In this document: piece by piece, positions 31,682 to 41,915 of the stretch | How positions within the stretch are numbered: the first letter of the stretch is position 1 | Layout: each line of letters opens with the position of its first letter | NCBI RefSeq assembly: GCF_018304765.1 | Contig: NZ_CP072642.1 | Location: forward strand, 2,013,819 to 2,077,818 | Length of the DNA stretch: 64,000 nt | Source: Chloracidobacterium sp. N | GTDB lineage: Bacteria; Acidobacteriota; Blastocatellia; Chloracidobacteriales; Chloracidobacteriaceae | Reading direction: 5' to 3' | The notes under the pieces: generated by a model | What the model was told of the DNA's origin: nothing | The model's database searches: none | The model's input: the letters and a program-made list of their open reading frames with translations, nothing else | Program-made: the position numbers and the translations under genes

Positions 31682-32503
31682 TCAGCCCGGCGAAGGCTGT
31701 GCCGCCGACGCGATGAGGGCTTCCGTCACGGCGCGTCCCGAAGCCACCAAGGCTTCCAGATCGGACTGCCGATACAGCAGCATGCCCCGCCCCAGCGCAT
31801 CCGGCAGGACGACGTGAATGGGCACGTCCGGCCGACGCGCCTGCCAGACCTTGAGTTTGGCAGCGTTTTCCCGCCGGTGGGACAGGCGGTTGGCAATGTC
31901 ACTGACCACAATCTGACGCGGACGGAAAGGCGCGGCAAAGAGGTACTCGATGGGCAGCCGGTTGCGCCCACCGGCGTCGCTGAGGGACATCCGCTGCCCG
32001 GCATGGACGATGCGCCGTGGCGGATAGACCACCGGAATGGCCACGGCCCCCCGCATGGCCTCGGCCAGCGGGAAATCCGGCATCTGGTTGTGAAACATGA
32101 CTTCCCGCCTGGCAAGGCCATCGAAGGCCAGCAGGCCAATGCGCTCGACGCCGTGGTGCAGTGACCGCCCGGAGGCTTGTTCGAGCCGCTCCAGATAGGT
32201 TGGGACAATCCCGGCCCGGCGCTGGAAGTAAGGGCGGGCAAAGCGTGGTGCACGGCGCGCCGCTGCCCAGGCCAGCAGATGCCGCGAGGAAAGCCCCAGC
32301 CCCAGGGTGCGCATTTCCTCAAGCGACAGACCAACCCCGGCATAGTAGGCCGCAATCAGCGCGCCAACGCTGGAGCCGACGATTTCCTGTATGCGGAAAC
32401 CGTGCGTCACCAACGCTTCGAGCACCCCGACGTGGGCGACGCCACGCGCACCCCCAGCGGCGAGAACCAGACTGACCGGCTCTTCTGGTTGCAGTGGACG
32501 CAT
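31682..32503 (-). CDS. Patatin-like phospholipase / esterase
   Basis: A 273-residue patatin-family hydrolase. The oxyanion-hole motif Gly-Gly-Ala-Arg-Gly is at 17-21, the nucleophile Ser45 is in Gly-Ser-Ser-Val-Gly (43-47), and the catalytic Asp176 is in Ser-Asp-Ala-Gly-Gly. Such enzymes release fatty acids from phospholipids; there is no signal peptide, so it should act inside the cell or at the inner membrane. ATG 32503 has a G-rich stretch just upstream; a GTG at 32533 with AGGGGAA upstream is an alternative that adds ten residues. It lies 89 bases downstream of sucC on the same strand. Confidence 0.88.
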   Translation of the reverse strand: MRPLQPEEPVSLVLAAGGARGVAHVGVLEALVTHGFRIQEIVGSSVGALIAAYYAGVGLSLEEMRTLGLGLSSRHLLAWAAARRAPRFARPYFQRRAGIVPTYLERLEQASGRSLHHGVERIGLLAFDGLARREVMFHNQMPDFPLAEAMRGAVAIPVVYPPRRIVHAGQRMSLSDAGGRNRLPIEYLFAAPFRPRQIVVSDIANRLSHRRENAAKLKVWQARRPDVPIHVVLPDALGRGMLLYRQSDLEALVASGRAVTEALIASAAQPSPG

Positions 32504-32592
32504 GTCCCCCCCATACCACAGGTGACAGGCCACTTCCCCTGAAAGACCGTGCCCGGAAGATGGGTTCTGCCCAGTGCAGCCGCCAGGTGCGC

Positions 32593-33753
<1,161 letters not shown>

Positions 33754-33778
33754 AAGCAGGTTCCTGAGTGAGCCGGGC

Positions 33779-35038
33779 TTAGCGGCGGCTGCGCAGACGC
33801 TCGATGGCCTGCTTCAGACTGATGCGCATGCGTTCGAGCGATTCGCCCAGTTCGCCGATTTCATCCCCGGTGGCGACCACGATGGGCTCATCGAGTTCGC
33901 CGAGACTGATGCGGTTCGCGGCTTCGGTCAGTTGCAGAATCGGCTTCGTGAGAAGCTGCGACAGGTAAAAGGCAATGCCAACGCCCAGCACCAGTGAGAC
34001 GCCGGTGACGATGGCAATGATGAGCAGCGTCGTGTTGAACACCTGACTGAAATAGCTTTCACGCACCCCCACGCCAACGTAGCCGATGATGGTGAGGTCA
34101 CTGGGCTCCTTGATCGGCGCAAAGGCCGTTTTGTAATCGCCTCCCAGCAGGGTGTTGTTGACGGCCGTGGGTTTGTCGTCGGCCAGCGGACCTTGAATCG
34201 CCACACCCAGGGCGCGGGGATCGCTGGCTGAAATCACCTTCTTATCCTTCGACAGCACGAGTGTCACCGACACATCCTGCAGGTCGCGGTAGAGCGTCTG
34301 CTTGATTTCCCGCGTGAGTGCCGTCAGGGGACGGTTCTCATCCTGGGGCGCGTTGTTGATGAGCTGCCCGGCCACAACGTAGCCCTGCACCCGATTGCCG
34401 GACACCACCGGCGCAATGCCTTCGAGGGTCAGCCCAACCTGTGACGCCACGTTGCGGTTGAACTGCTCGGCCAGGCCAAAGTCCCGGAGCAGATCGGGCG
34501 TTTCATTGACGGCCCCGGACACCAGCGCCCGCAACAGGGCATCGGGCTGATTGCTTTCGGCAGCATTTTTGGCCTTGATGAACAGCGGGTTGTCACCAAA
34601 GGAGCTGTCTCCACTGCCGGCGCTGCGCATCAGAACCTGCCCTTTGGTGTCGAGGGTGGCCAGGAAGTCCACCCCGGAAGATTCGACCCGCTGCCGCAGC
34701 AACTGACTGAGCTTTTGCCGCCCGCCCGCCTGGCTCTGCTGGGCCACCTGGGCTGGATTCCCCGAAGCACTCGAAGCCCCGGTCGGCGCCGCCGCCGAGT
34801 CAATGAGGTTCTCGGCCGCAATGGCCTGGGCCGTGGACTGGGCGACTTCCCGCAGGGCCTGCTGTCGGGAGCGCAGAATGCGGTCGGCGAGGCGGGCATC
34901 CTTTTCGATGTCCCGGCGGGCATTGCCATCAATCGTCCCACTGACGATGACCACGAAAGCCAGCGCCGACAGCGCCAGCGGCGCAAAAATGAGGAGCGCC
35001 GCAAAAATGGCAAGTTTATTCCGAATGTTGAGTTTCAT
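33779..35038 (-). CDS. Membrane HAMP sensor without an output domain
   Basis: A 419-residue protein with a membrane helix at about 10-34, a large periplasmic sensor (about 35-330, Cache-like in length), a second helix (about 335-361) and a HAMP domain (about 359-412). It ends seven residues later in Arg-Leu-Arg-Ser-Arg-Arg. No histidine kinase, methyl-accepting, cyclase or GGDEF domain follows, and the stop codon is clean. It must signal by recruiting partners, and the DUF4388/roadblock proteins upstream on the same strand are candidates (inference). An inverted repeat lies in its 5' region. Confidence 0.85.
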   Translation of the reverse strand: MKLNIRNKLAIFAALLIFAPLALSALAFVVIVSGTIDGNARRDIEKDARLADRILRSRQQALREVAQSTAQAIAAENLIDSAAAPTGASSASGNPAQVAQQSQAGGRQKLSQLLRQRVESSGVDFLATLDTKGQVLMRSAGSGDSSFGDNPLFIKAKNAAESNQPDALLRALVSGAVNETPDLLRDFGLAEQFNRNVASQVGLTLEGIAPVVSGNRVQGYVVAGQLINNAPQDENRPLTALTREIKQTLYRDLQDVSVTLVLSKDKKVISASDPRALGVAIQGPLADDKPTAVNNTLLGGDYKTAFAPIKEPSDLTIIGYVGVGVRESYFSQVFNTTLLIIAIVTGVSLVLGVGIAFYLSQLLTKPILQLTEAANRISLGELDEPIVVATGDEIGELGESLERMRISLKQAIERLRSRR

Positions 35039-35058
35039 GGTCGAAAATGAAGCGTGAC

Positions 35059-35075
35059 GTGTCGGTGGCCGACAC
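35059..35075. repeat. Perfect 7-bp hairpin upstream of the HAMP-sensor gene
   Basis: GTGTCGG, loop TGG, CCGACAC, 21 bases upstream of the minus-strand start at 35038. It may be an attenuating hairpin that separates the sensor gene from the DUF4388 genes upstream, or an operator. No adjacent T-run. Confidence 0.4.
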
Positions 35076-35194
35076 GGCCGAAAGGTGCGGCCCCCGCCTG
35101 CCTCCCCAACCTGCCGGGAGCAGGGACGCTACGATGCGAAACCATCCCGACAGCGTGGCCCACGCCCGACGCCCATCCAGTGCAGCCGTCCGGG

Positions 35195-36001
35195 TCAGGC
35201 ATAAAGGTGCTGCATGATTTCAAGCATGGCCTCCTGAAACTTGACCCGCCGTTCGTTGTCCGGGATTTCTTCGGCCAGGCGCTCGGCCAGGGATGGCATC
35301 ATGTCTTTGGGCATCTGCCGCAGTTTGAACCCAAGGGCTTCGGCGCAGTCTTCGAGCACAATCGGCGCCATGGGGCCGATGGCGCGGGTCAGTTCGCGCT
35401 CAGTCTGGTGGATGATGTCATCTGAGACCACATCCACCTGCACATCCTCTTCCTGACGCTCGCCGACATACTCGACGAGCCCCAAATCGTACAGGCGGAC
35501 GATCACCTTCGACGCCATCAGTTCATTGAGTTGCGTGATGTCCCCAATCTCGCCGACCGTCTGGACACCATCCAGGTTCTGAATCACCGACCAGTCTTCC
35601 GCGCGCAGGGAAAACTCCTTCATCGAGCGCGAAGAAAGCCGGAACACCGCGCGCGCCGAGGGCACGACCCGGCGGACACTTTCCCACTCGGTCGCATAGG
35701 TGACGCATTCCAGCAGAATCTCTTCGGTCTGAAGGTAGGTGGTTCGTTCATCGGTTGGCGTGTCCGTGGCTGTGAAGCTGAACTTCCCGCTGCCCCAGGA
35801 AAACAGACCATAGACGGCGTCCTCCCCGATGGCATCCTCATAAACAGCGTGGACAATCTGGCCGTTGTCGAAATAAATCTCCCCCTGCCGCCCATCGTCG
35901 TGAACGAGTTCCAGCGTCCCGGTCCGGTTGCTCGCATGAAGCAGCCGCAGGACATCCATAAGCTTGAGCTGCGCCAGATTCCCACTGAATGCGTTCGACA
36001 T
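35195..36001 (-). CDS. DUF4388 (PATAN) domain protein
   Basis: A 268-residue cytoplasmic protein. Residues 1-105 form a DUF4388/PATAN domain: a Leu-Leu-His-Ala-Ser-Asn-Arg-Thr-Gly-Thr-Leu-Glu-Leu start, an Ile-Tyr-Phe-Asp-Asn-Gly-Gln-Ile-Val-His-Ala core and a Ser-Gly-Lys-Phe-Ser-Phe end. Residues 120-200 look like a second small winged or helical domain, and the C-terminal 70 residues are helical and acidic. The start is ATG 36001, giving the domain at the very N-terminus. PATAN domains are adaptor modules linked to motility and response-regulator signalling in other bacteria. It is the fourth gene of the cluster. Confidence 0.82.
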   Translation of the reverse strand: MSNAFSGNLAQLKLMDVLRLLHASNRTGTLELVHDDGRQGEIYFDNGQIVHAVYEDAIGEDAVYGLFSWGSGKFSFTATDTPTDERTTYLQTEEILLECVTYATEWESVRRVVPSARAVFRLSSRSMKEFSLRAEDWSVIQNLDGVQTVGEIGDITQLNELMASKVIVRLYDLGLVEYVGERQEEDVQVDVVSDDIIHQTERELTRAIGPMAPIVLEDCAEALGFKLRQMPKDMMPSLAERLAEEIPDNERRVKFQEAMLEIMQHLYA

Positions 36002-36105
36002 GGTGTACGTCCCCAGGGCCAAACAAAATACCGTTGGGTGCTCTGACCAGCTCCCGGCGGAAGCCGCCACGCGCCCCCTGATGCCACGTCACCTCGCTGC
36101 CACCG

Positions 36106-36594
36106 TCAGGCGCGATTCATGGCTTCCAGCAGCTCCCAACTCGTCGCATCGAGTCGGTCGCGCGTCAAAAGATTGCGACGCAACACACTGACGCTGACCC
36201 GTAGTCCAGCCACGGCACGGTCTTTTTTGAGCTTGTCGGCCGCTACCTTGACGGTCATGCGCATGGTCGGCAGGTTGGCCGCCGGCACACTGACGAGGAT
36301 GAGGAAGACTTCCTGCGTACCATAGGTGGTCTCGATCATCAAGTCAAGATTCGTGAAAGTGGTGATGCGCCCGTCGGCAAAGACCATCGAGATTTCTTCG
36401 ACCTTGTTGTACTCGATCTCGGCCACCGCCGAGAGCTGCGCCAGCAGCACCCCCATCTGCACGGTCGCCTGGGAGTTGAGGGCGAATTGTCCGGCGCTCA
36501 ACAGGACTTCCCCGCGATTGTTAACGAGCAGGGCGCTTTTGATGCCCGGCATGCGCATCAGGTCCTGGAGAAACACTTCATGGGCTTTCGACAT
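36106..36594 (-). CDS. Roadblock/LC7-like protein
   Basis: A 162-residue protein with the roadblock pattern. A first helix is followed by Pro-Gly-Ile-Lys-Ser-Ala-Leu-Leu-Val-Asn-Asn-Arg-Gly-Glu-Val-Leu (about 17-32), a long second helix, paired strands (Glu-Ile-Ser-Met-Val-Phe-Ala-Asp-Gly-Arg-Ile) and a final helix near residue 125. The C-terminal 35 residues are basic and extra. Roadblock proteins such as MglB regulate small Ras-like GTPases; no GTPase gene is in this cluster. The start at 36594 is set by AAGGAG (complement of 36600-36605), five bases upstream. Confidence 0.8.
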   Translation of the reverse strand: MSKAHEVFLQDLMRMPGIKSALLVNNRGEVLLSAGQFALNSQATVQMGVLLAQLSAVAEIEYNKVEEISMVFADGRITTFTNLDLMIETTYGTQEVFLILVSVPAANLPTMRMTVKVAADKLKKDRAVAGLRVSVSVLRRNLLTRDRLDATSWELLEAMNRA

Positions 36595-36667
36595 GCGCAC
36601 TCCTTACCAATCAAGGCTCGATTCACAATACTCACGGCGTCCCGCTGACTGGAACCAGTGCCGCCAC

Positions 36668-37939
36668 CTATCCGGCCGGGTATCCGGCCGAGGGTGCCAG
36701 AATTTCGTTTGTGGCGATTTCCAGACCGTACCGCTCGAACTCCGCCCGCCGCCGCTGATGTAACGCCCGCAATGCCGCCTCGATATGCTGGCGAAGCTGG
36801 GTTTCCGGCGCGCGCCGGTCCAGATCGGTGACGGTAAGCCGGAGCGCCTGCGAAAGCCCCACCACGAAGTCTGCCGGACGCGCCTTGCCGCGAAACGTGG
36901 CCATGCCATCGGCATACTCAAACTCGGCCGCAAAAGGGTCAAGAAAGGGATAGTGGGTGGCAATGCTGATGAGCGCCTCACGGAATGCCGGTACGAAATC
37001 CGCCCGGCGCAGGGCTTCCGTGACACCGGATTCCACGGCGCGCACCACCTCCCCCATCAAGCCGACCAGTTCGGCATACTGCTCGCGGGTCAGCGGGCGA
37101 ATACTTTCATCTTCGAGTTCGAGCGGTGAATCGCTGTCCTCCACGTCCTCGACGAGCACCGTATCCACCACCGGGGACGCGCTGGGCAGGGGCTGCACCT
37201 CCGGCACGCGCAGGGTGGGTGGCGCCAGGTCAGGCGCTGGTGTCACGGGGCCGGGACGACTGACCGGCGGCGGACTGACCGGCGGCATTTCCGGGCGTGG
37301 CGGCGCGACCAGCGGCTTGATGGTCGCCATTGAAGCCGCCGGGGTGCTCGTCCCACGATAGACGTTGAACGTGGCCCCCCGCGCAACCCGGTCGTAAATC
37401 AGTGCCAGTCCGTCCTTCCCCAGCGCCGTGGCGTACTCGCCGCCAGCCGTCGGTGCGACCGAAACGACGGCCTCGGCCCGCTCATCGAAAACGTAGATGA
37501 TTCCGCCGCCCTGTTCCTGTTCAAACAGGACTTCAACATACCAGGCAGTGCCGGACTTGATGAGCTTTTCGACGAGCTTTTCGAGGTTGGTAAAATCCGA
37601 AGACAAATCGCGGTGCACCGGCTCACCATCAATGATGCCGGTAATGGCCTGGATGACTTCTTCCGGGTGCTGGAAGAACCCGACCTTGCCGTTGCGCGCC
37701 TGGGCGCGTGACAGCAGGTTGTCCAAAGCCTGCCGCTCGCGCTGGACAGAGGTTTCCGTCGCCTCGTAGGCATTGACAATCTGCCCGCGCGACAGGAACA
37801 CATAGCCACTGTAGCCCCAGAACTCGACGGAGACATAGCCCGTAAACTCGTTGACCTGGAGATCAGCCAGCAGGGCCGCAACGTTGACGTACGAAGTGCT
37901 CAGGTTTTCATGGACTGGCTTTCCGCGTGGAACAATCAT
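36668..37939 (-). CDS. DUF4388-like protein with proline-rich linker
   Basis: A 423-residue cytoplasmic protein in three parts. An N-terminal DUF4388-like domain (about 15-110) has Phe-Thr-Gly-Tyr-Val-Ser-Val-Glu and Val-Phe-Leu-Ser-Arg-Gly-Gln-Ile-Val-Asn-Ala. A second mixed region (about 110-205) follows, then a Pro/Ala/Val-rich linker with Pro-Pro-Val-Ser-Pro-Pro-Pro-Val-Ser-Arg-Pro (about 210-275). The C-terminal half (about 285-415) is helical and acidic. ATG 37939 is taken as the start; a TTG two codons earlier is possible. It follows the first cluster gene by 47 bases. Long flexible linkers of this kind usually join interaction modules. Confidence 0.78.
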   Translation of the reverse strand: MIVPRGKPVHENLSTSYVNVAALLADLQVNEFTGYVSVEFWGYSGYVFLSRGQIVNAYEATETSVQRERQALDNLLSRAQARNGKVGFFQHPEEVIQAITGIIDGEPVHRDLSSDFTNLEKLVEKLIKSGTAWYVEVLFEQEQGGGIIYVFDERAEAVVSVAPTAGGEYATALGKDGLALIYDRVARGATFNVYRGTSTPAASMATIKPLVAPPRPEMPPVSPPPVSRPGPVTPAPDLAPPTLRVPEVQPLPSASPVVDTVLVEDVEDSDSPLELEDESIRPLTREQYAELVGLMGEVVRAVESGVTEALRRADFVPAFREALISIATHYPFLDPFAAEFEYADGMATFRGKARPADFVVGLSQALRLTVTDLDRRAPETQLRQHIEAALRALHQRRRAEFERYGLEIATNEILAPSAGYPAG

Positions 37940-37986
37940 GGCCAAGCGTCAACATCAACCGGTGTCGCAGCGCCAAGCCGACAGCA

Positions 37987-38826
37987 CTACATCGTCAGCG
38001 GCCCCGCATAAGGCCCAGGTGGGGTCAGCGCACCTGTACCACCCAACAAACCCGTCGAAACCCCTTCGGTTGCACCGTTGATGCGCGCCTGCATCTTGCG
38101 GAAGATGCGGTCAATGTGTGGACTCATGGTTTCAAACCGAACCGCCGCACTGAACTCGATGAGCGCCAGGTAGTTTTCGAGGTCGAAGACCATTACCTTC
38201 TTCGGGCCAACGCTGATGGTCATCCGGGACAGGGCCCCCACCCGGCTCGGCACGGTGATGAGCCGTCCAAGGTGAACCAGCAGGGCCACCATCATGCCCA
38301 GCTTTTCGGCTGATTTGACTTTACTGGCAGCCTGCACGGTGCCATCCCGCGCCACCGCCAGCGCCATGTCAATCCCTTTGACTTTTGTCAGATCATTGAC
38401 CAGCACCTGGTAAATGTTGACCACCCGGGCTGCGCCACTCGTGGTCGTCGGCGTCCGGGTCGGCAGCGCCGCTGTCGGCGTGGGTGTGGTGGCTTCACCA
38501 TCTTCTCCGCGTCCCGCGCGGGCCTCGTCCAGCAGCCGCAGCCCTTCCATGATGAGGTTGGCCCAAGGCTCAAAAATCGTGCGGGTCGGCGCTGGAATGC
38601 CGGTGTCAATCCGAAAGGCTCCCTGGTCATACTCCAGGGCCTTGTACACCGCTTCAACCCCTACCAGATTACCGAGACGCGCATCCACCACCTCACCATC
38701 GGCAAAGTAAAACACGCCATCGCCAATCGGGTAGTGAACGGTCAGCCGCGCCGTGTTGCGGCCGACGCAGTTGATTTGGATGATGTCCACCAGTGCGAGG
38801 TCGGTGAGATCGCCTACGAGCGGCAT
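37987..38826 (-). CDS. DUF4388-roadblock fusion protein
   Basis: A 279-residue protein, the first gene of the cluster. Residues 1-100 are a DUF4388/PATAN domain (Gly-Val-Phe-Tyr-Phe-Ala-Asp-Gly-Glu-Val-Val-Asp-Ala core). A Thr/Pro-rich linker follows (about 112-132). Residues 135-240 look like a roadblock domain, with Val-Lys-Gly-Ile-Asp-Met-Ala-Leu-Ala-Val-Ala-Arg-Asp-Gly-Thr-Val and a later Val-Met-Val-Phe-Asp-Leu-Glu-Asn-Tyr strand. The fusion links the two domain types found separately in the following genes, good evidence that those proteins work together. A strong promoter candidate and inverted repeat lie upstream. Confidence 0.82.
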   Translation of the reverse strand: MPLVGDLTDLALVDIIQINCVGRNTARLTVHYPIGDGVFYFADGEVVDARLGNLVGVEAVYKALEYDQGAFRIDTGIPAPTRTIFEPWANLIMEGLRLLDEARAGRGEDGEATTPTPTAALPTRTPTTTSGAARVVNIYQVLVNDLTKVKGIDMALAVARDGTVQAASKVKSAEKLGMMVALLVHLGRLITVPSRVGALSRMTISVGPKKVMVFDLENYLALIEFSAAVRFETMSPHIDRIFRKMQARINGATEGVSTGLLGGTGALTPPGPYAGPLTM

Positions 38827-38861
38827 AGGGCTTTCCAGGCAGGAAAAACAGGTTTTGGAAG

Positions 38862-38878
38862 CGTTATGAACTATAACG
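38862..38878. promoter_or_regulatory. Inverted repeat in the leader of the DUF4388 cluster, possible operator
   Basis: CGTTAT (38862-38867), 5-base spacer, ATAACG (38873-38878). It is A+T-rich in a G+C-rich genome and lies just downstream of the promoter candidate, at about +5 to +21 of the predicted minus-strand transcript, a position where a repressor would block elongation. Confidence 0.5.
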
Positions 38879-38889
38879 AAGGTAGGGCT

Positions 38890-38919
38890 AAGCTAACAGA
38901 GTTTTTTCCGTGGTGTCAA
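38890..38919 (-). promoter_or_regulatory. Candidate extended -10 promoter for the DUF4388/roadblock cluster
   Basis: On the minus strand a perfect TTGACA (complement of 38914-38919) is followed after 18 bases by TAGCTT (complement of 38890-38895), preceded by TG one base upstream (extended -10). The first gene starts at 38826, about 57 bases from the predicted transcription start. Confidence 0.55.
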
Positions 38920-38981
38920 TTCACGATGCACCATCTGATCGACACCCGGTAGCAACCCCCCGGAGCCGTTTTGCCGGCGGG

Positions 38982-41915
38982 CTAGTCGGTCTGATACCGC
39001 CGCCACAACCAGATGCCGGTCACAAACAGCGTCAGTCCCACCAGAGCCAGATAGACGCCGTAGGGCACGTCACCCCACGGCACACTGACCGCCAACACCA
39101 CCGACAGGTGCAGCCCCAACGCCGTCCCGCCGGCAAAGGCCGGAGCTTTCCAGCGCGTGGACAGACCCAGCACCAGTGCGGTCAATGCCGTTGCATCCGC
39201 CAGCATGTCCTGGCCAGGCGCCCCCTTGCCATCCAGACGGAGCAGTATAGACTGCACGACGACCGGAAAGCAGAAGACGAAGCTCCCCAGCCAGATGAGC
39301 AGGCGCGCCAGCACCGGATGACCGCGCTGCCACCGCCACTTGAGCCAGCCGACACCCGCCACCACCACGCCATAGGGCACAGTCAGGGCGGCAACCCGCT
39401 CAAACGGCGGCAACACCAGGTAGCTGAGCGCCCATACGTAAGTCACAGCGCCCCACACCAGCGCGGCTACGGCGTACAGGTCATGCGTGGCATCCCGGGC
39501 AAGGAAACTGGCTACGGCCAATGCGCTGGCCGCGCAGACAAGACTACAGCCGACGAGCACTGCGGACTGACCTTCCAGAACGCCCAGCGCGCCCACAGCC
39601 CCAACCCACAGGCAGAGCTGCCCGCCGGCGTTCAGTGATCCCCACAACGACGGTTCGGCTTCTCCCTCCTTGGCGCGCTGCGGTCTCCGCCACCCCAGCC
39701 ACGCCGCGCTGTAGCCATACACCACACCAACCATGGGCAACGCTTCCATCGGACATCCGGCGAGCCGCGCGGCCTGGACGGCCGCCAGCCCGCCACACAC
39801 CGTTGCCAACAGCCCCCACAGCGGAACCACCTGCCGGACGGCGGCTACCCAGCCCGCACCAGCCGCCGATGCCAGTGCCAGGAAGTGCCCGGCTTCCGGC
39901 CCCGTCGCGGTCACGATGCCAACCAGCGCGGACGGCACGCCCCACCCCAGCACAACCAGCGAGACCTGCCGTAATGCAGCGCGAAGGTGGCTTTCATCCA
40001 CCACCGGAGCGGACACCACCACGACACTGCCCCCGGCAACCAGCGCCACCCAGGGCAGGATGTCGAGCCATCCCACCTGCCCGGCGCCGCACCCCGTCAC
40101 CACCAGCCCCACGTAGGCCACACCCCACAGCGCCAGGGCATACCCACGCTGAAGACCCGGCGTACTGCTCAGAAACCATCCCAGGCCGCCATAAAGGGCC
40201 AGGATGGCAATCCCGACCGTGTGAACCGGATGCCATGCCTCCGCGGCCAGCACCACCAGCCCCAGCAGGTGAACAACCGCGCAGAAATCCACCACCCACC
40301 GCGACGGCACGATGGCCGGATGATGCGGCAGCCCGAAGTCGAGACCAAAGCTCGTGTCCACCTCGGTGCTGTACTCCCGCCCCAGCCACGCGCCCAGCCA
40401 CTCAATCCCGAAGCGCGTGGCACACAGCACAACCGGCAGCACCAGCAGGGCCATCGGCCCAGAAATGACCTGTATCTCCCGTGCGCCCATCGTCAGGGCG
40501 CTGGAGATGGCCAGAATGGACACGACCGCCAGGCAGAGTGGAAACCACAGGAGCGTTTTCCGCATCTGCCACGCCCCCCACCCCGCCACGAGCGCCCACG
40601 CCAGACCGTACCCGACACACTCATGAGCCGTCGCCAGCCCGCGGCCGAGCGTGATTCCAGCCGACGTTGCAAAAAGCCAGATGTCAAAGCCGATGACGAC
40701 GCCAAGCAGCGCCCACAAACCAAGGACGCCCGCCAGAAGATGCCCCGCCCACCTGCACGGCACAGAGAAACGTCGGGCCTGCTCTTCGTGGTCCGTTTCC
40801 GCCCGGCGATCCGCTGCGATCTGCCCCAAGGTGAGCACCCACAGCCAGCCGGCCCAACCCGTTGCCAGCCAGCCCGATGGCAGGTTGTGCAGCGCGAGCC
40901 ATTGACCATAGGCCAGCGTCAGGACGCCGAGACCACCGCCCACCCATGCCCAGGCCGCGCCCTGGCTGGCCGTCACCGCCCCCACCACTAGACATGAAAG
41001 GCCGGTGAGGCCGCCCAGCCAGAATTCACCAAGGGAAGGCGTCGTCAGCGCGCACAATCCCACAGTGGCCGCACCCCACCACCAACCCGCCACAGCCGCA
41101 ATGTGGGCCGGAAAACGGACCGACCAGACGGCCAGCCCCATCGCAACGACCGACAGCAGTCCGCAGGCCGCCGCTTCCGACGGCAGGACATCCACCCCAA
41201 ACCACAGGACGGCCACCAACCCGACACCCACCGCCAGGTGGGGCACGGCCCGGTCAGCAAGCCATGTGGCCAGCGACCAGTACGCCACGGCACACGCCAG
41301 CGCATAAGCCCACCCGACCCCGGACGGCAGCCAGCCGTGCCGAACCCCCAACCAGGAATTGAGCGGAAGCAGCAACATCGCCAGCCAGAGCCAGCCCCGG
41401 GCCAGGAGATTGTCGGGATCGTGATGCAAACCGCGCACCGCCAGCCCGAAAAACCCCGCCATGGCCGCCGTGACGAGACCAAGCTGCACCGCCGGATATT
41501 CCAGAATGATGCCCCGCAGGTACACCAGCGCGCCGATGACCATCAGCATCCCGCCGCCATACACCAGAACCGGCAGCAACCACGCCACAGAACCGGTATC
41601 AGCATCGGACGGCCACCCGGCCTCCGGCTCCGTTTCGGCCAACGCGGTCTCCATCTGCACTGGCGGCACAGGTCTGCCCGGCGCGGAACCCGCTTTCGCG
41701 GTGCTGGCTTCCGTGGGCAGCAGCGACATCAGAATGGCCCGGCGTTCGGCCTCAAGCGCCGCCAACCGCTCAAAGGCGACTGCGTCGTAGCGCAATCCAC
41801 ACCGGATACAGTATTTCTGCCCAACCGCCAGCGGCGCCCCACAGTTCGGACACCAACCCCCATACGGATGCCCGGCCGCACCCCCTCCGCCCGAAGTGAC
41901 GTCTGCTTCCAACAT
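38982..41915 (-). CDS. Large polytopic membrane protein with N-terminal zinc ribbon
   Basis: A 977-residue protein. The N-terminus carries a zinc ribbon (Cys22-x2-Cys25 ... Cys36-x2-Cys39), then a linker of about 80 residues, then more than 20 hydrophobic helices from about residue 108 to the end. The helical part, rich in Gly, Ala, Leu and Trp, resembles the DUF2157/DUF2339 class of many-helix membrane proteins of unknown function. No transporter or enzyme motif is recognised. The start is ATG 41915, with GAGGGGG (complement of 41922-41928) six bases upstream. It precedes the DUF4388 cluster on the same strand, but 155 bases and a promoter separate them. Divergent from hisZ. Confidence 0.8.
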   Translation of the reverse strand: MLEADVTSGGGGAAGHPYGGWCPNCGAPLAVGQKYCIRCGLRYDAVAFERLAALEAERRAILMSLLPTEASTAKAGSAPGRPVPPVQMETALAETEPEAGWPSDADTGSVAWLLPVLVYGGGMLMVIGALVYLRGIILEYPAVQLGLVTAAMAGFFGLAVRGLHHDPDNLLARGWLWLAMLLLPLNSWLGVRHGWLPSGVGWAYALACAVAYWSLATWLADRAVPHLAVGVGLVAVLWFGVDVLPSEAAACGLLSVVAMGLAVWSVRFPAHIAAVAGWWWGAATVGLCALTTPSLGEFWLGGLTGLSCLVVGAVTASQGAAWAWVGGGLGVLTLAYGQWLALHNLPSGWLATGWAGWLWVLTLGQIAADRRAETDHEEQARRFSVPCRWAGHLLAGVLGLWALLGVVIGFDIWLFATSAGITLGRGLATAHECVGYGLAWALVAGWGAWQMRKTLLWFPLCLAVVSILAISSALTMGAREIQVISGPMALLVLPVVLCATRFGIEWLGAWLGREYSTEVDTSFGLDFGLPHHPAIVPSRWVVDFCAVVHLLGLVVLAAEAWHPVHTVGIAILALYGGLGWFLSSTPGLQRGYALALWGVAYVGLVVTGCGAGQVGWLDILPWVALVAGGSVVVVSAPVVDESHLRAALRQVSLVVLGWGVPSALVGIVTATGPEAGHFLALASAAGAGWVAAVRQVVPLWGLLATVCGGLAAVQAARLAGCPMEALPMVGVVYGYSAAWLGWRRPQRAKEGEAEPSLWGSLNAGGQLCLWVGAVGALGVLEGQSAVLVGCSLVCAASALAVASFLARDATHDLYAVAALVWGAVTYVWALSYLVLPPFERVAALTVPYGVVVAGVGWLKWRWQRGHPVLARLLIWLGSFVFCFPVVVQSILLRLDGKGAPGQDMLADATALTALVLGLSTRWKAPAFAGGTALGLHLSVVLAVSVPWGDVPYGVYLALVGLTLFVTGIWLWRRYQTD

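What the first reader, a model, noticed from the sequence alone, without database searches (positions are those of the whole stretch)
33779..38826. Five-gene DUF4388 (PATAN)/roadblock/HAMP cluster: possible undescribed signalling system
Three proteins carry DUF4388-type domains, two carry roadblock-like domains, one fuses both, and the last is an output-less HAMP receptor. Roadblock proteins normally control small GTPases, yet none is present. The set looks like a receptor plus adaptor complex, possibly for motility or surface polarity.
Basis: partly seen in the sequence, partly recalled or inferred. Interest (0 to 1): 0.68.

Follow-up and report, generated by a model that had tools for sequence, protein, structure and literature searches.

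The report
Conserved five-gene roadblock/DUF4388 receptor operon
Five adjacent genes in a green phototrophic acidobacterium form a conserved operon: a membrane sensor with no signalling output of its own, plus four soluble adaptor proteins of kinds that elsewhere control small GTPases and pili, so it is probably an undescribed sensing pathway whose target is still unknown.

Summary
In a Chloracidobacterium-type genome, window 33779-38826 (- strand) encodes P5 (DUF4388 + roadblock), P4 (two tandem modules, the first DUF4388-like, + C-terminal domain), P3 (roadblock), P2 (DUF4388 + winged-helix-like region + conserved C-terminal domain) and P1 (Cache-like sensor + HAMP, ending there). All five are under purifying selection. 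The gene order P5-(P4)-P3-P2-P1 survives in 23 genomes of 7 acidobacterial families, down to about 19-36% identity, while flanking genes change; P4 is missing in three. In one 347-genome draw, P2 and P3 were found in the same 16 genomes. The cluster has no GTPase, but an MglB-MglA pair lies 1.17 Mb away, and MglA-like GTPases occur in all 23 cassette genomes (237 of 347 in the phylum draw, so suggestive only). P3 may lack the two MglB residues reported to orient MglA, so I read P3/P5 as MglC/Ragulator-like adaptors rather than GAPs. Best model: P1 signals through P2/P4/P5 and P3 to the MglBA switch. Direct pilus control and DNA binding by P2 are the rivals. The PATAN-roadblock link is in print; I found no description of this cassette. 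New variant of a known kind; target and phenotype untested.

The parts
37987..38826 (-). P5, first gene: N-terminal DUF4388, linker, C-terminal roadblock domain (279 aa)
   Evidence: Pfam DUF4388 68.2 bits; family profile vs solved roadblock chains E 7.6e-6; Robl_LC7 matched at E<=5 by 6 of 13 orthologues, best 3.7e-6
36668..37939 (-). P4: two tandem mutually similar modules (about residues 1-107 and 104-202), the first weakly DUF4388-like; low-confidence Pro-rich linker; C-terminal domain with a conserved YPFLDPFA-type motif; the optional member
   Evidence: hhalign module 1 vs 2 98.2%, E 2.1e-13; AF2 repeats the same strand/helix order; missing in 3 of 22 testable loci, not found elsewhere in those 3 genomes
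36106..36594 (-). P3: stand-alone roadblock/LC7-fold protein, about 162 aa
   Evidence: AF2 pLDDT 75; Foldseek PDB hits include MglB, Ragulator p14 and Asgard roadblock; Pfam 18.9 bits, below cut-off
35195..36001 (-). P2: DUF4388 + winged-helix-like middle + conserved C-terminal domain (IGPMAPIV...EIPD..R..FQ), 268 aa
   Evidence: Pfam DUF4388 84.7 bits; winged-helix/MarR models in up to 6 of 11 orthologues but not in the window protein; MarR chains top the PDB profile search, E 0.0015; alignments A2, A9
33779..35038 (-). P1: transmembrane receptor, Cache-like periplasmic region, HAMP, no output domain (419 aa)
   Evidence: Pfam HAMP 51.4 bits at 359-409; sCache_3_2 28.2 bits, just under cut-off 28.4; an orthologue is over the sCache_3_3 cut-off at 66.5 bits; hydrophobic segments about 14-32 and 338-356; short tail in 23 of 23 loci
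32593..33753 (-). Downstream neighbour sucC (succinyl-CoA ligase beta), 25 bp after P1; not part of the cassette
   Evidence: Pfam ATP-grasp_2 and Ligase_CoA; next to P1 in L030-L038, no match in the stretches L039-L043

Best explanation
The five genes encode one sensory relay. P1 senses a ligand or envelope state with its periplasmic Cache-like domain and passes a conformational change through HAMP, which ends the protein and therefore must act on a partner. That partner is most likely P2. P2, P4 and P5 (DUF4388-type domains) form the scaffold, and the roadblock domains of P3 and P5 make a heteromeric platform that recruits or tunes the cell's MglBA GTPase switch, encoded elsewhere, as MglC and RomY do for MglB in Myxococcus. 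The output would then be an MglA-controlled surface process such as pilus activity or placement. Shown: the genes, domains, co-conservation and presence of MglBA. Inferred: every protein contact, the GTPase as target, and the output.
For: Order P5-(P4)-P3-P2-P1 kept in 23 genomes of 7 families: P1, P2 and P3 in 23 of 23 loci, P5 in 20 of 20 and P4 in 19 of 22 where the contig reaches, genes cut by a contig end included (window). P2 and P3 in the same 16 of 347 genomes; next-best P2 hit E 4.9e-45 against 6.3e-104. A P2-like + P1-like pair with no P3, P4 or P5 match in the fetched 12.5 kb of G008 (L095) points to P1-P2 as the core contact. P1 stops 9-15 residues after the HAMP-end motif in 23 of 23 loci, and 10 of its 18 invariant columns lie in the last 50 residues. 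Roadblock fold of P3. MglA-like GTPase in 23 of 23 cassette genomes. Published precedents: PATAN genes near some group 1/5 mglA genes (PMC4316618, passages), RomY-MglB (PMC9481161, passages), RomR-MglC-MglB (PMC10329633, passages).
Against: MglBA is 1.17 Mb away and MglA is far commoner (237 of 347) than the cassette (16 of 347); 16 of 16 against that background gives p 0.002 if genomes were independent, but only about 0.07 counted over 7 families. One cassette genome, G187 (82% complete), has only a distant MglA match inside a 765-aa frame. P3 may lack the MglB residues N37/R98 (R29/E97 instead; weak alignment), and the P5 roadblock region did not align with this genome's MglB (0.2%). The genus is described as non-motile. 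None of 15 flanking genes scanned with Pfam is a recognised motility, pilus or GTPase gene (5 of them had no match at E<=0.01); most flanking ORFs were not scanned. No complex was modelled.
Confidence: 0.42

Rival explanations
1. GTPase-independent relay: P1 acts through the DUF4388 proteins directly on the type IV pilus motor, as is hypothesised for the PATAN response regulator PixE and PilB1 in Synechocystis; the roadblock domains serve only for dimerisation.
For: PATAN response regulators PixE, PixG and LsiR are implicated in T4P motility in Synechocystis, PixE by a hypothesised PilB1 contact (PMC7690835, passages). PilT-family ATPase in 23 of 23 cassette genomes. Three of the five proteins carry DUF4388-type domains, P4 weakly.
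Against: PilT is in 297 of 347 genomes of the phylum draw anyway. No pilus gene among the 15 flanking genes scanned. No REC domain was found in the cassette. The genome has 14 other DUF4388 matches, 6 of the 13 scanned fused to REC, which could fill that role.
Confidence: 0.25
2. Membrane-to-DNA signalling: P2's winged helix binds DNA, and P1 with the roadblock and DUF4388 partners holds or releases it, so the output is transcription.
For: At E<=5, HTH_27 and HTH_47 each hit 6 of 11 P2 orthologues and MarR_2 hits 3, best E 2.4e-6; MarR chains top the PDB profile search, E 0.0015.
Against: The window P2 itself hits no HTH model in that scan. Proteins matching the DUF4388 and winged-helix part of the P2 profile are found in 77 further genomes without the cassette. 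Weak hits also go to DUF742 (2 of 11) and the GATOR1 NPRL3 HTH (1 of 11), which by recall are not known as DNA-binding domains.
Confidence: 0.2
3. Degenerate conservon-like system: an ancestral HAMP receptor/roadblock/GTPase operon that lost its GTPase and kinase parts and kept residual scaffolding.
For: Same kinds of parts as an actinobacterial conservon: HAMP sensor, roadblock, small scaffold (PMC4316618, passages; PMC13343842, abstract and outline); 2 of 11 P2 orthologues hit DUF742, best E 0.042.
Against: Strong purifying selection, dN/dS 0.012-0.095, and conservation over 7 families; the DUF742 hit whose score was shown is far under cut-off (13.1 against 27 bits); DUF4388 is not among the four core conservon proteins named in that abstract.
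Confidence: 0.05

Closest known systems
MglA/MglB/MglC/RomY/RomR polarity module of Myxococcus xanthus
   Same: More than one roadblock protein, adaptors feeding a signal into an MglA GTPase; MglA-like and MglB-like genes are both present in this genome.
   Different: Here the input is a dedicated membrane receptor; DUF4388 proteins are added; no GTPase in the operon; P3 may lack the MglB N37/R98 residues.
Conservons / actinobacterial G protein systems (CvnABCD)
   Same: Operon with a HAMP membrane sensor, a roadblock protein and a possibly winged-helix-like small protein.
   Different: No histidine kinase domain, no GTPase, DUF742 not established, DUF4388 proteins instead, different phylum.
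PATAN (DUF4388) response regulators of cyanobacteria (PatA, PixE, PixG, LsiR)
   Same: DUF4388/PATAN domain as adaptor; described genome context includes MglA/MglB homologues (PMC4316618, passages). That DUF4388 and PATAN are the same domain is recalled.
   Different: No REC domain in any of the five; partners are roadblock domains and a HAMP receptor; P4 has a divergent tandem pair.
Ragulator (eukaryotic roadblock scaffold)
   Same: LAMTOR2/p14 and MglB are among the closest solved structures to P3; a heteromeric roadblock platform fed by membrane signals, by analogy.
   Different: Only the superfamily fold is shared; no complex shown.

Membership tests
DUF4388 / PATAN (PF14332) | Score over the curated cut-off, P2 and P5 | tested here: met
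   84.7 and 68.2 bits, cut-off 25; 11 of 11 and 13 of 13 orthologues match
DUF4388 / PATAN (PF14332) | Score over the curated cut-off, P4 | tested here: inconclusive
   19.0 bits against 25, so not over it; 8 of 11 orthologues match at E<=5, best 8.5e-5; module 1 vs P2 DUF4388 35%, E 7e-5, module 2 1%
Roadblock/LC7 (PF03259) | Curated sequence cut-off, P3 and P5 | tested here: not met
   18.9 and 14.6 bits, cut-off 23
Roadblock/LC7 fold | alpha-beta-beta-alpha-beta-beta-beta-alpha fold matching solved roadblock proteins (P3) | tested here: met
   Predicted model and Foldseek PDB, E 4e-7 to 1e-5, prob 1.00, TM by query length about 0.5; for P5 only by sequence profile, E 7.6e-6
MglB-type GAP | Gene next to its mglA | tested here: not met
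   No GTPase in the five genes; MglBA pair 1.17 Mb away
MglB-type GAP | Residues equivalent to M. xanthus MglB N37 and R98 (named in PMC11016934) in P3 | tested here: inconclusive
   P3 has R29 and E97 there, each in 15 of 15 (A1); R 11 of 12 and E 9 of 12 in A5; the alignment to this genome's MglB is weak (22%, E 1e-3), and the Myxococcus sequence itself was not aligned
Conservon / AGPS | Histidine kinase-like CvnA | tested here: not met
   P1 has only Cache-like and HAMP matches in Pfam and ends 10 residues after HAMP
Conservon / AGPS | Small GTPase CvnD in the operon | tested here: not met
   None among the five genes or the two flanking genes scanned
Conservon / AGPS | CvnC, DUF742 (that CvnC is DUF742 is recalled) | tested here: inconclusive
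   2 of 11 P2 orthologues at E<=5, best E 0.042; not the window protein
Chemoreceptor or sensor kinase | Cytoplasmic output domain after HAMP | tested here: not met
   Window P1; in 23 of 23 cassette loci the frame stops 9-15 residues after the HAMP-end motif
MglA-dependent regulator | Physical or genetic interaction with MglA or MglB | not testable with these tools

The most novel reading that the evidence does not exclude
An undescribed class of bacterial transmembrane signalling: an output-less HAMP receptor that works neither by kinase nor by chemotaxis array but by a heteromeric DUF4388/roadblock scaffold (a bacterial counterpart of Ragulator in logic), acting in trans on a shared MglA GTPase, with P2-P1 as the minimal core.
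Probability: 0.3. Interest if true: 0.75.

Novelty: new variant of a known kind. Interest (0 to 1): 0.5.

Why it matters
Many bacterial roadblock proteins are orphans: 328 of 749 MglB homologues in one survey were not coupled to an mglA, and none of the orphans had been characterised at that date (PMC4316618, passages). How PATAN domains connect to receptors outside cyanobacteria is, as far as I know, also open. This cassette ties orphan roadblock domains, DUF4388 domains and a specific membrane receptor into one co-inherited unit, so the question becomes directly testable by deletion and pull-down.

Tried and rejected
Chance or mis-called ORFs: rejected, dN/dS 0.012-0.095 against 0.034-0.037 for sucC.

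Roadblock by Pfam alone: P3 and P5 fail the cut-off; rescued by predicted fold and family profiles. NCBIfam names none of the five; P1's best hits are the HAMP region of sensor kinases, far under cut-off.

Pilus link by co-occurrence: rejected as uninformative (23 of 23, but 297 of 347 in the phylum; p 0.08).

MglA link by co-occurrence: weak.

P4 fold: no Foldseek PDB match at E<=0.001; VIA-align second look best Z 6.7, acetolactate decarboxylases, in the range its notes call common; the P4 profile reached no PDB chain better than E 0.021. No fold is claimed.

P1 paralogues in this genome: six other matches to the P1 profile, covering only its C-terminal part, in frames of 466-803 aa; not followed.

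Relatives outside Acidobacteriota: not settled. The one genome-contig scan found 10 loci: 9 have Chloracidobacterium, Blastocatellia or Acidobacteria titles and 1 has an 'Actinomycetota' title with an Acidobacteria scaffold name; P1, P2 and P3 are in 10 of 10, and their contig lengths are those of 10 of the loci already counted by handle. Plasmids had no match with P2 or P5; viral contigs gave no relative of P2; PHROGs hit only residues 330-416 of P1.

Second-tier P2-like proteins (E 1e-45 to 1e-26): 10 loci inspected; 9 of 10 had no P1, P3 or P4 match and no MglA/MglB match in the 10-13 kb fetched; L095 had the P1-like partner.

Promoters and terminators (32500-39100): 3 promoter-like sites against 0.9 by chance, none in the 155 bp before P5; terminators at chance.

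Full report
SETTING. The window lies at C1:2013819-2077818 of a two-contig genome, 2.64 + 1.08 Mb. Named relatives of P3 are mostly Chloracidobacterium and other Blastocatellia records. The genus name is inferred from these and from the replicon layout (recalled).

ANATOMY. The genes run on the - strand in the order P5, P4, P3, P2, P1, then sucC. Starts taken from conserved N-termini give gaps of 47, 73, 104, 156 and 25 bp. In a distant relative (L067) the gaps are -1, 9, 23 and 24 bp, as in an operon. P1 is a membrane protein with an N-terminal and a second hydrophobic segment, a Cache-like region between them and HAMP at 359-409 of 419. P2 has DUF4388, a winged-helix-like middle and a C-terminal domain with an invariant GP in all 11 aligned members. 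P3 is a stand-alone roadblock-fold protein. P4 has two mutually similar modules (98%, E 2.1e-13), the first weakly similar to DUF4388 of P2 (35%, E 7e-5), the second not by itself (1%), and a C-terminal domain; its predicted model shows the same order of strands and helices twice. P5 joins DUF4388 to a roadblock domain; its two domains match DUF4388 of P2 (99.4%) and P3 (92%) respectively.

THE ROADBLOCK CALLS. Pfam alone would have rejected both (18.9 and 14.6 bits, cut-off 23). The P3 model (mean pLDDT 75) matches Ragulator p14, MglB and Asgard roadblock proteins with probability 1.00; 48 of the 50 rows shown are titled as that superfamily or its complexes, the other two being complexes that by recall are Ragulator. 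The P5 family profile reaches solved roadblock chains at E 7.6e-6; the P3 profile reaches only two chains at E<=10, both roadblock, at E 0.066-0.07. The window P3 matches Robl_LC7 at E 0.0013, and 4 of 12 P3 and 6 of 13 P5 members match it at E<=5.

CO-CONSERVATION. P3 was found in 15 of 118 genomes of the class and, with a profile, in 16 of 347 of the phylum, own genome included; the union is 23 genomes in families f1, f2, f6, f22, f38, f46 and f62. In their loci (window; 14 loci; 8) P1, P2 and P3 occur in 23 of 23, P5 in 20 of 20 where the contig reaches, and P4 in 19 of 22, counting genes cut by a contig end. P4 is absent in L040, L071 and L074 and was not found elsewhere in those genomes, so it is an optional part. 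A P2 profile run on the phylum draw gave the same 16 genomes at E<=6.3e-104, and next a paralogue at 4.9e-45. The profile contains cassette members, so this is not fully independent. Identity of the distant members to the window is 19-36%. Neighbours differ: sucC in the f1 loci; an enoyl-CoA hydratase in L070 (f22) and L072 (f38); TPR, AIM24, Hsp70-like, menaquinone-biosynthesis, tyrosyl-tRNA synthetase, mannosyltransferase-type and DUF4149 genes elsewhere. Of 15 flanking genes scanned with Pfam, 5 had no match at E<=0.01 and none is a recognised pilus, motility or GTPase gene; most flanking ORFs were not scanned. dN/dS against two congeners is 0.012-0.095 for the five genes, 0.034-0.037 for sucC and 0.27-0.30 for the upstream membrane gene.

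AN OUTPUT-LESS RECEPTOR, ALWAYS. In 23 of 23 cassette loci the P1 frame stops 9-15 residues after the motif that ends HAMP, and the short tail is itself conserved (mostly QAIERLRxR or SAIERLRxR). Ten of the 18 invariant columns of P1 lie in its last 50 residues. I infer that the HAMP end is the output surface.

A MINIMAL PAIR. G008 carries, besides its cassette, a second locus (L095) with a P2 paralogue (DUF4388 50 bits, weak HTH, aligned over nearly the whole P2 profile) followed by a HAMP protein (52 bits) with a very weak Cache match, whose frame also stops 9 residues after the motif; the 12.5 kb fetched holds no P3, P4 or P5 match. This suggests that P1 and P2 contact each other and that the roadblock proteins are the elaboration.

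THE GTPASE. One exists in trans: at C1:873687-874851 lie an MglB-like protein (Robl_LC7 46.4 bits) and an MglA-like GTPase (Arf 27.0 bits, cut-off 22.3). MglA-like matches occur in 23 of 23 cassette genomes at E<=1e-10; one of these, G187 (82% complete), has only a more distant match inside a 765-aa frame. In the phylum draw 237 of 347 have one at E<=1e-20. The chance of 16 of 16 is 0.002 if genomes are independent and about 0.07 if 7 families are counted, so the association is suggestive only. In M. xanthus MglB, N37 and R98 contact MglA's switch-I region, and mutating both lowered GTPase stimulation (PMC11016934, passages). The aligned P3 residues are R29 and E97, each 15 of 15 in A1; in the wider A5, R in 11 of 12 and E in 9 of 12 (K in 2, D in 1). 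The alignment is weak (22%), and the P5 roadblock region did not align with MglB in any useful way (0.2%). If right, P3 is unlikely to be an MglB-type GAP; it could act like MglC, a roadblock protein that pulled down MglB and RomR but not MglA (PMC10329633, passages), or like RomY, which raises MglB GAP activity (PMC9481161, passages).

MECHANISM. Step 1, ligand or envelope signal to P1: inferred from Cache-like + HAMP. Step 2, HAMP to P2: inferred from the missing output domain, the conserved HAMP tail and the P2-P1 pair. Step 3, scaffold of DUF4388 and roadblock proteins: inferred from the domains. Step 4, MglBA as target: inferred, weakest link. Step 5, pili or surface organisation as output: inferred by analogy. 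The genus is non-motile by description, with many fimbriae proposed for attachment (PMC12816986, passages), so attachment fits better than movement.

WHAT IS IN PRINT. Full-text searches for DUF4388 (1 paper), PATAN with roadblock (5), 'PATAN domain' (10), roadblock + HAMP domain + operon + small GTPase (2), Acidobacteria + roadblock + MglB (2) and 'PatA N-terminal' + small GTPase (2) showed no description of this cassette in their listings; of those papers I read passages in PMC4316618, PMC11580455 and PMC7690835 and the abstract and outline of PMC13343842. The library holds open-licence papers only. The general link, PATAN genes near mglA/mglB, is published (PMC4316618, passages, citing Makarova 2006, which I did not see).

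VERDICT. It is made of known kinds of parts in a combination I did not find described. The function is not shown.

Noticed in passing
G000:C1:873687-874851 (L028:5688-6852), outside the window: MglB-like and MglA-like genes side by side in a genus described as non-motile; the best MglA-like matches of the same order are 92-99% identical.
   Followed up: partly
L095:5080-6798: Minimal P2-like + output-less HAMP pair in G008, in addition to its full cassette.
   Followed up: partly
77 further genomes of the phylum draw: Proteins matching mostly positions 4-185 of the P2 profile (DUF4388 and winged-helix part), without the cassette; in the 9 such loci inspected none was near P1, P3, P4, MglA or MglB matches.
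   Followed up: partly
Whole genome: 16 DUF4388 matches: besides the cassette's two, 13 scanned proteins carry DUF4388 with REC (6), DnaJ (4, one just under cut-off), a weak TPR only (1), FHA (1) or cNMP-binding (1) domains; a 14th, an 89-aa frame, was not scanned.
   Followed up: partly
38982-41915 (- strand): 977-aa polytopic membrane protein with a weak N-terminal zinc ribbon, fast evolving (dN/dS 0.27-0.30) next to the strongly conserved cassette.
   Followed up: partly
L060 (JAAFHI010000370.1): Public contig titled 'Actinomycetota bacterium' but with an Acidobacteria scaffold name carries the cassette at 87% P3 identity; probably a mislabelled bin.
   Followed up: no
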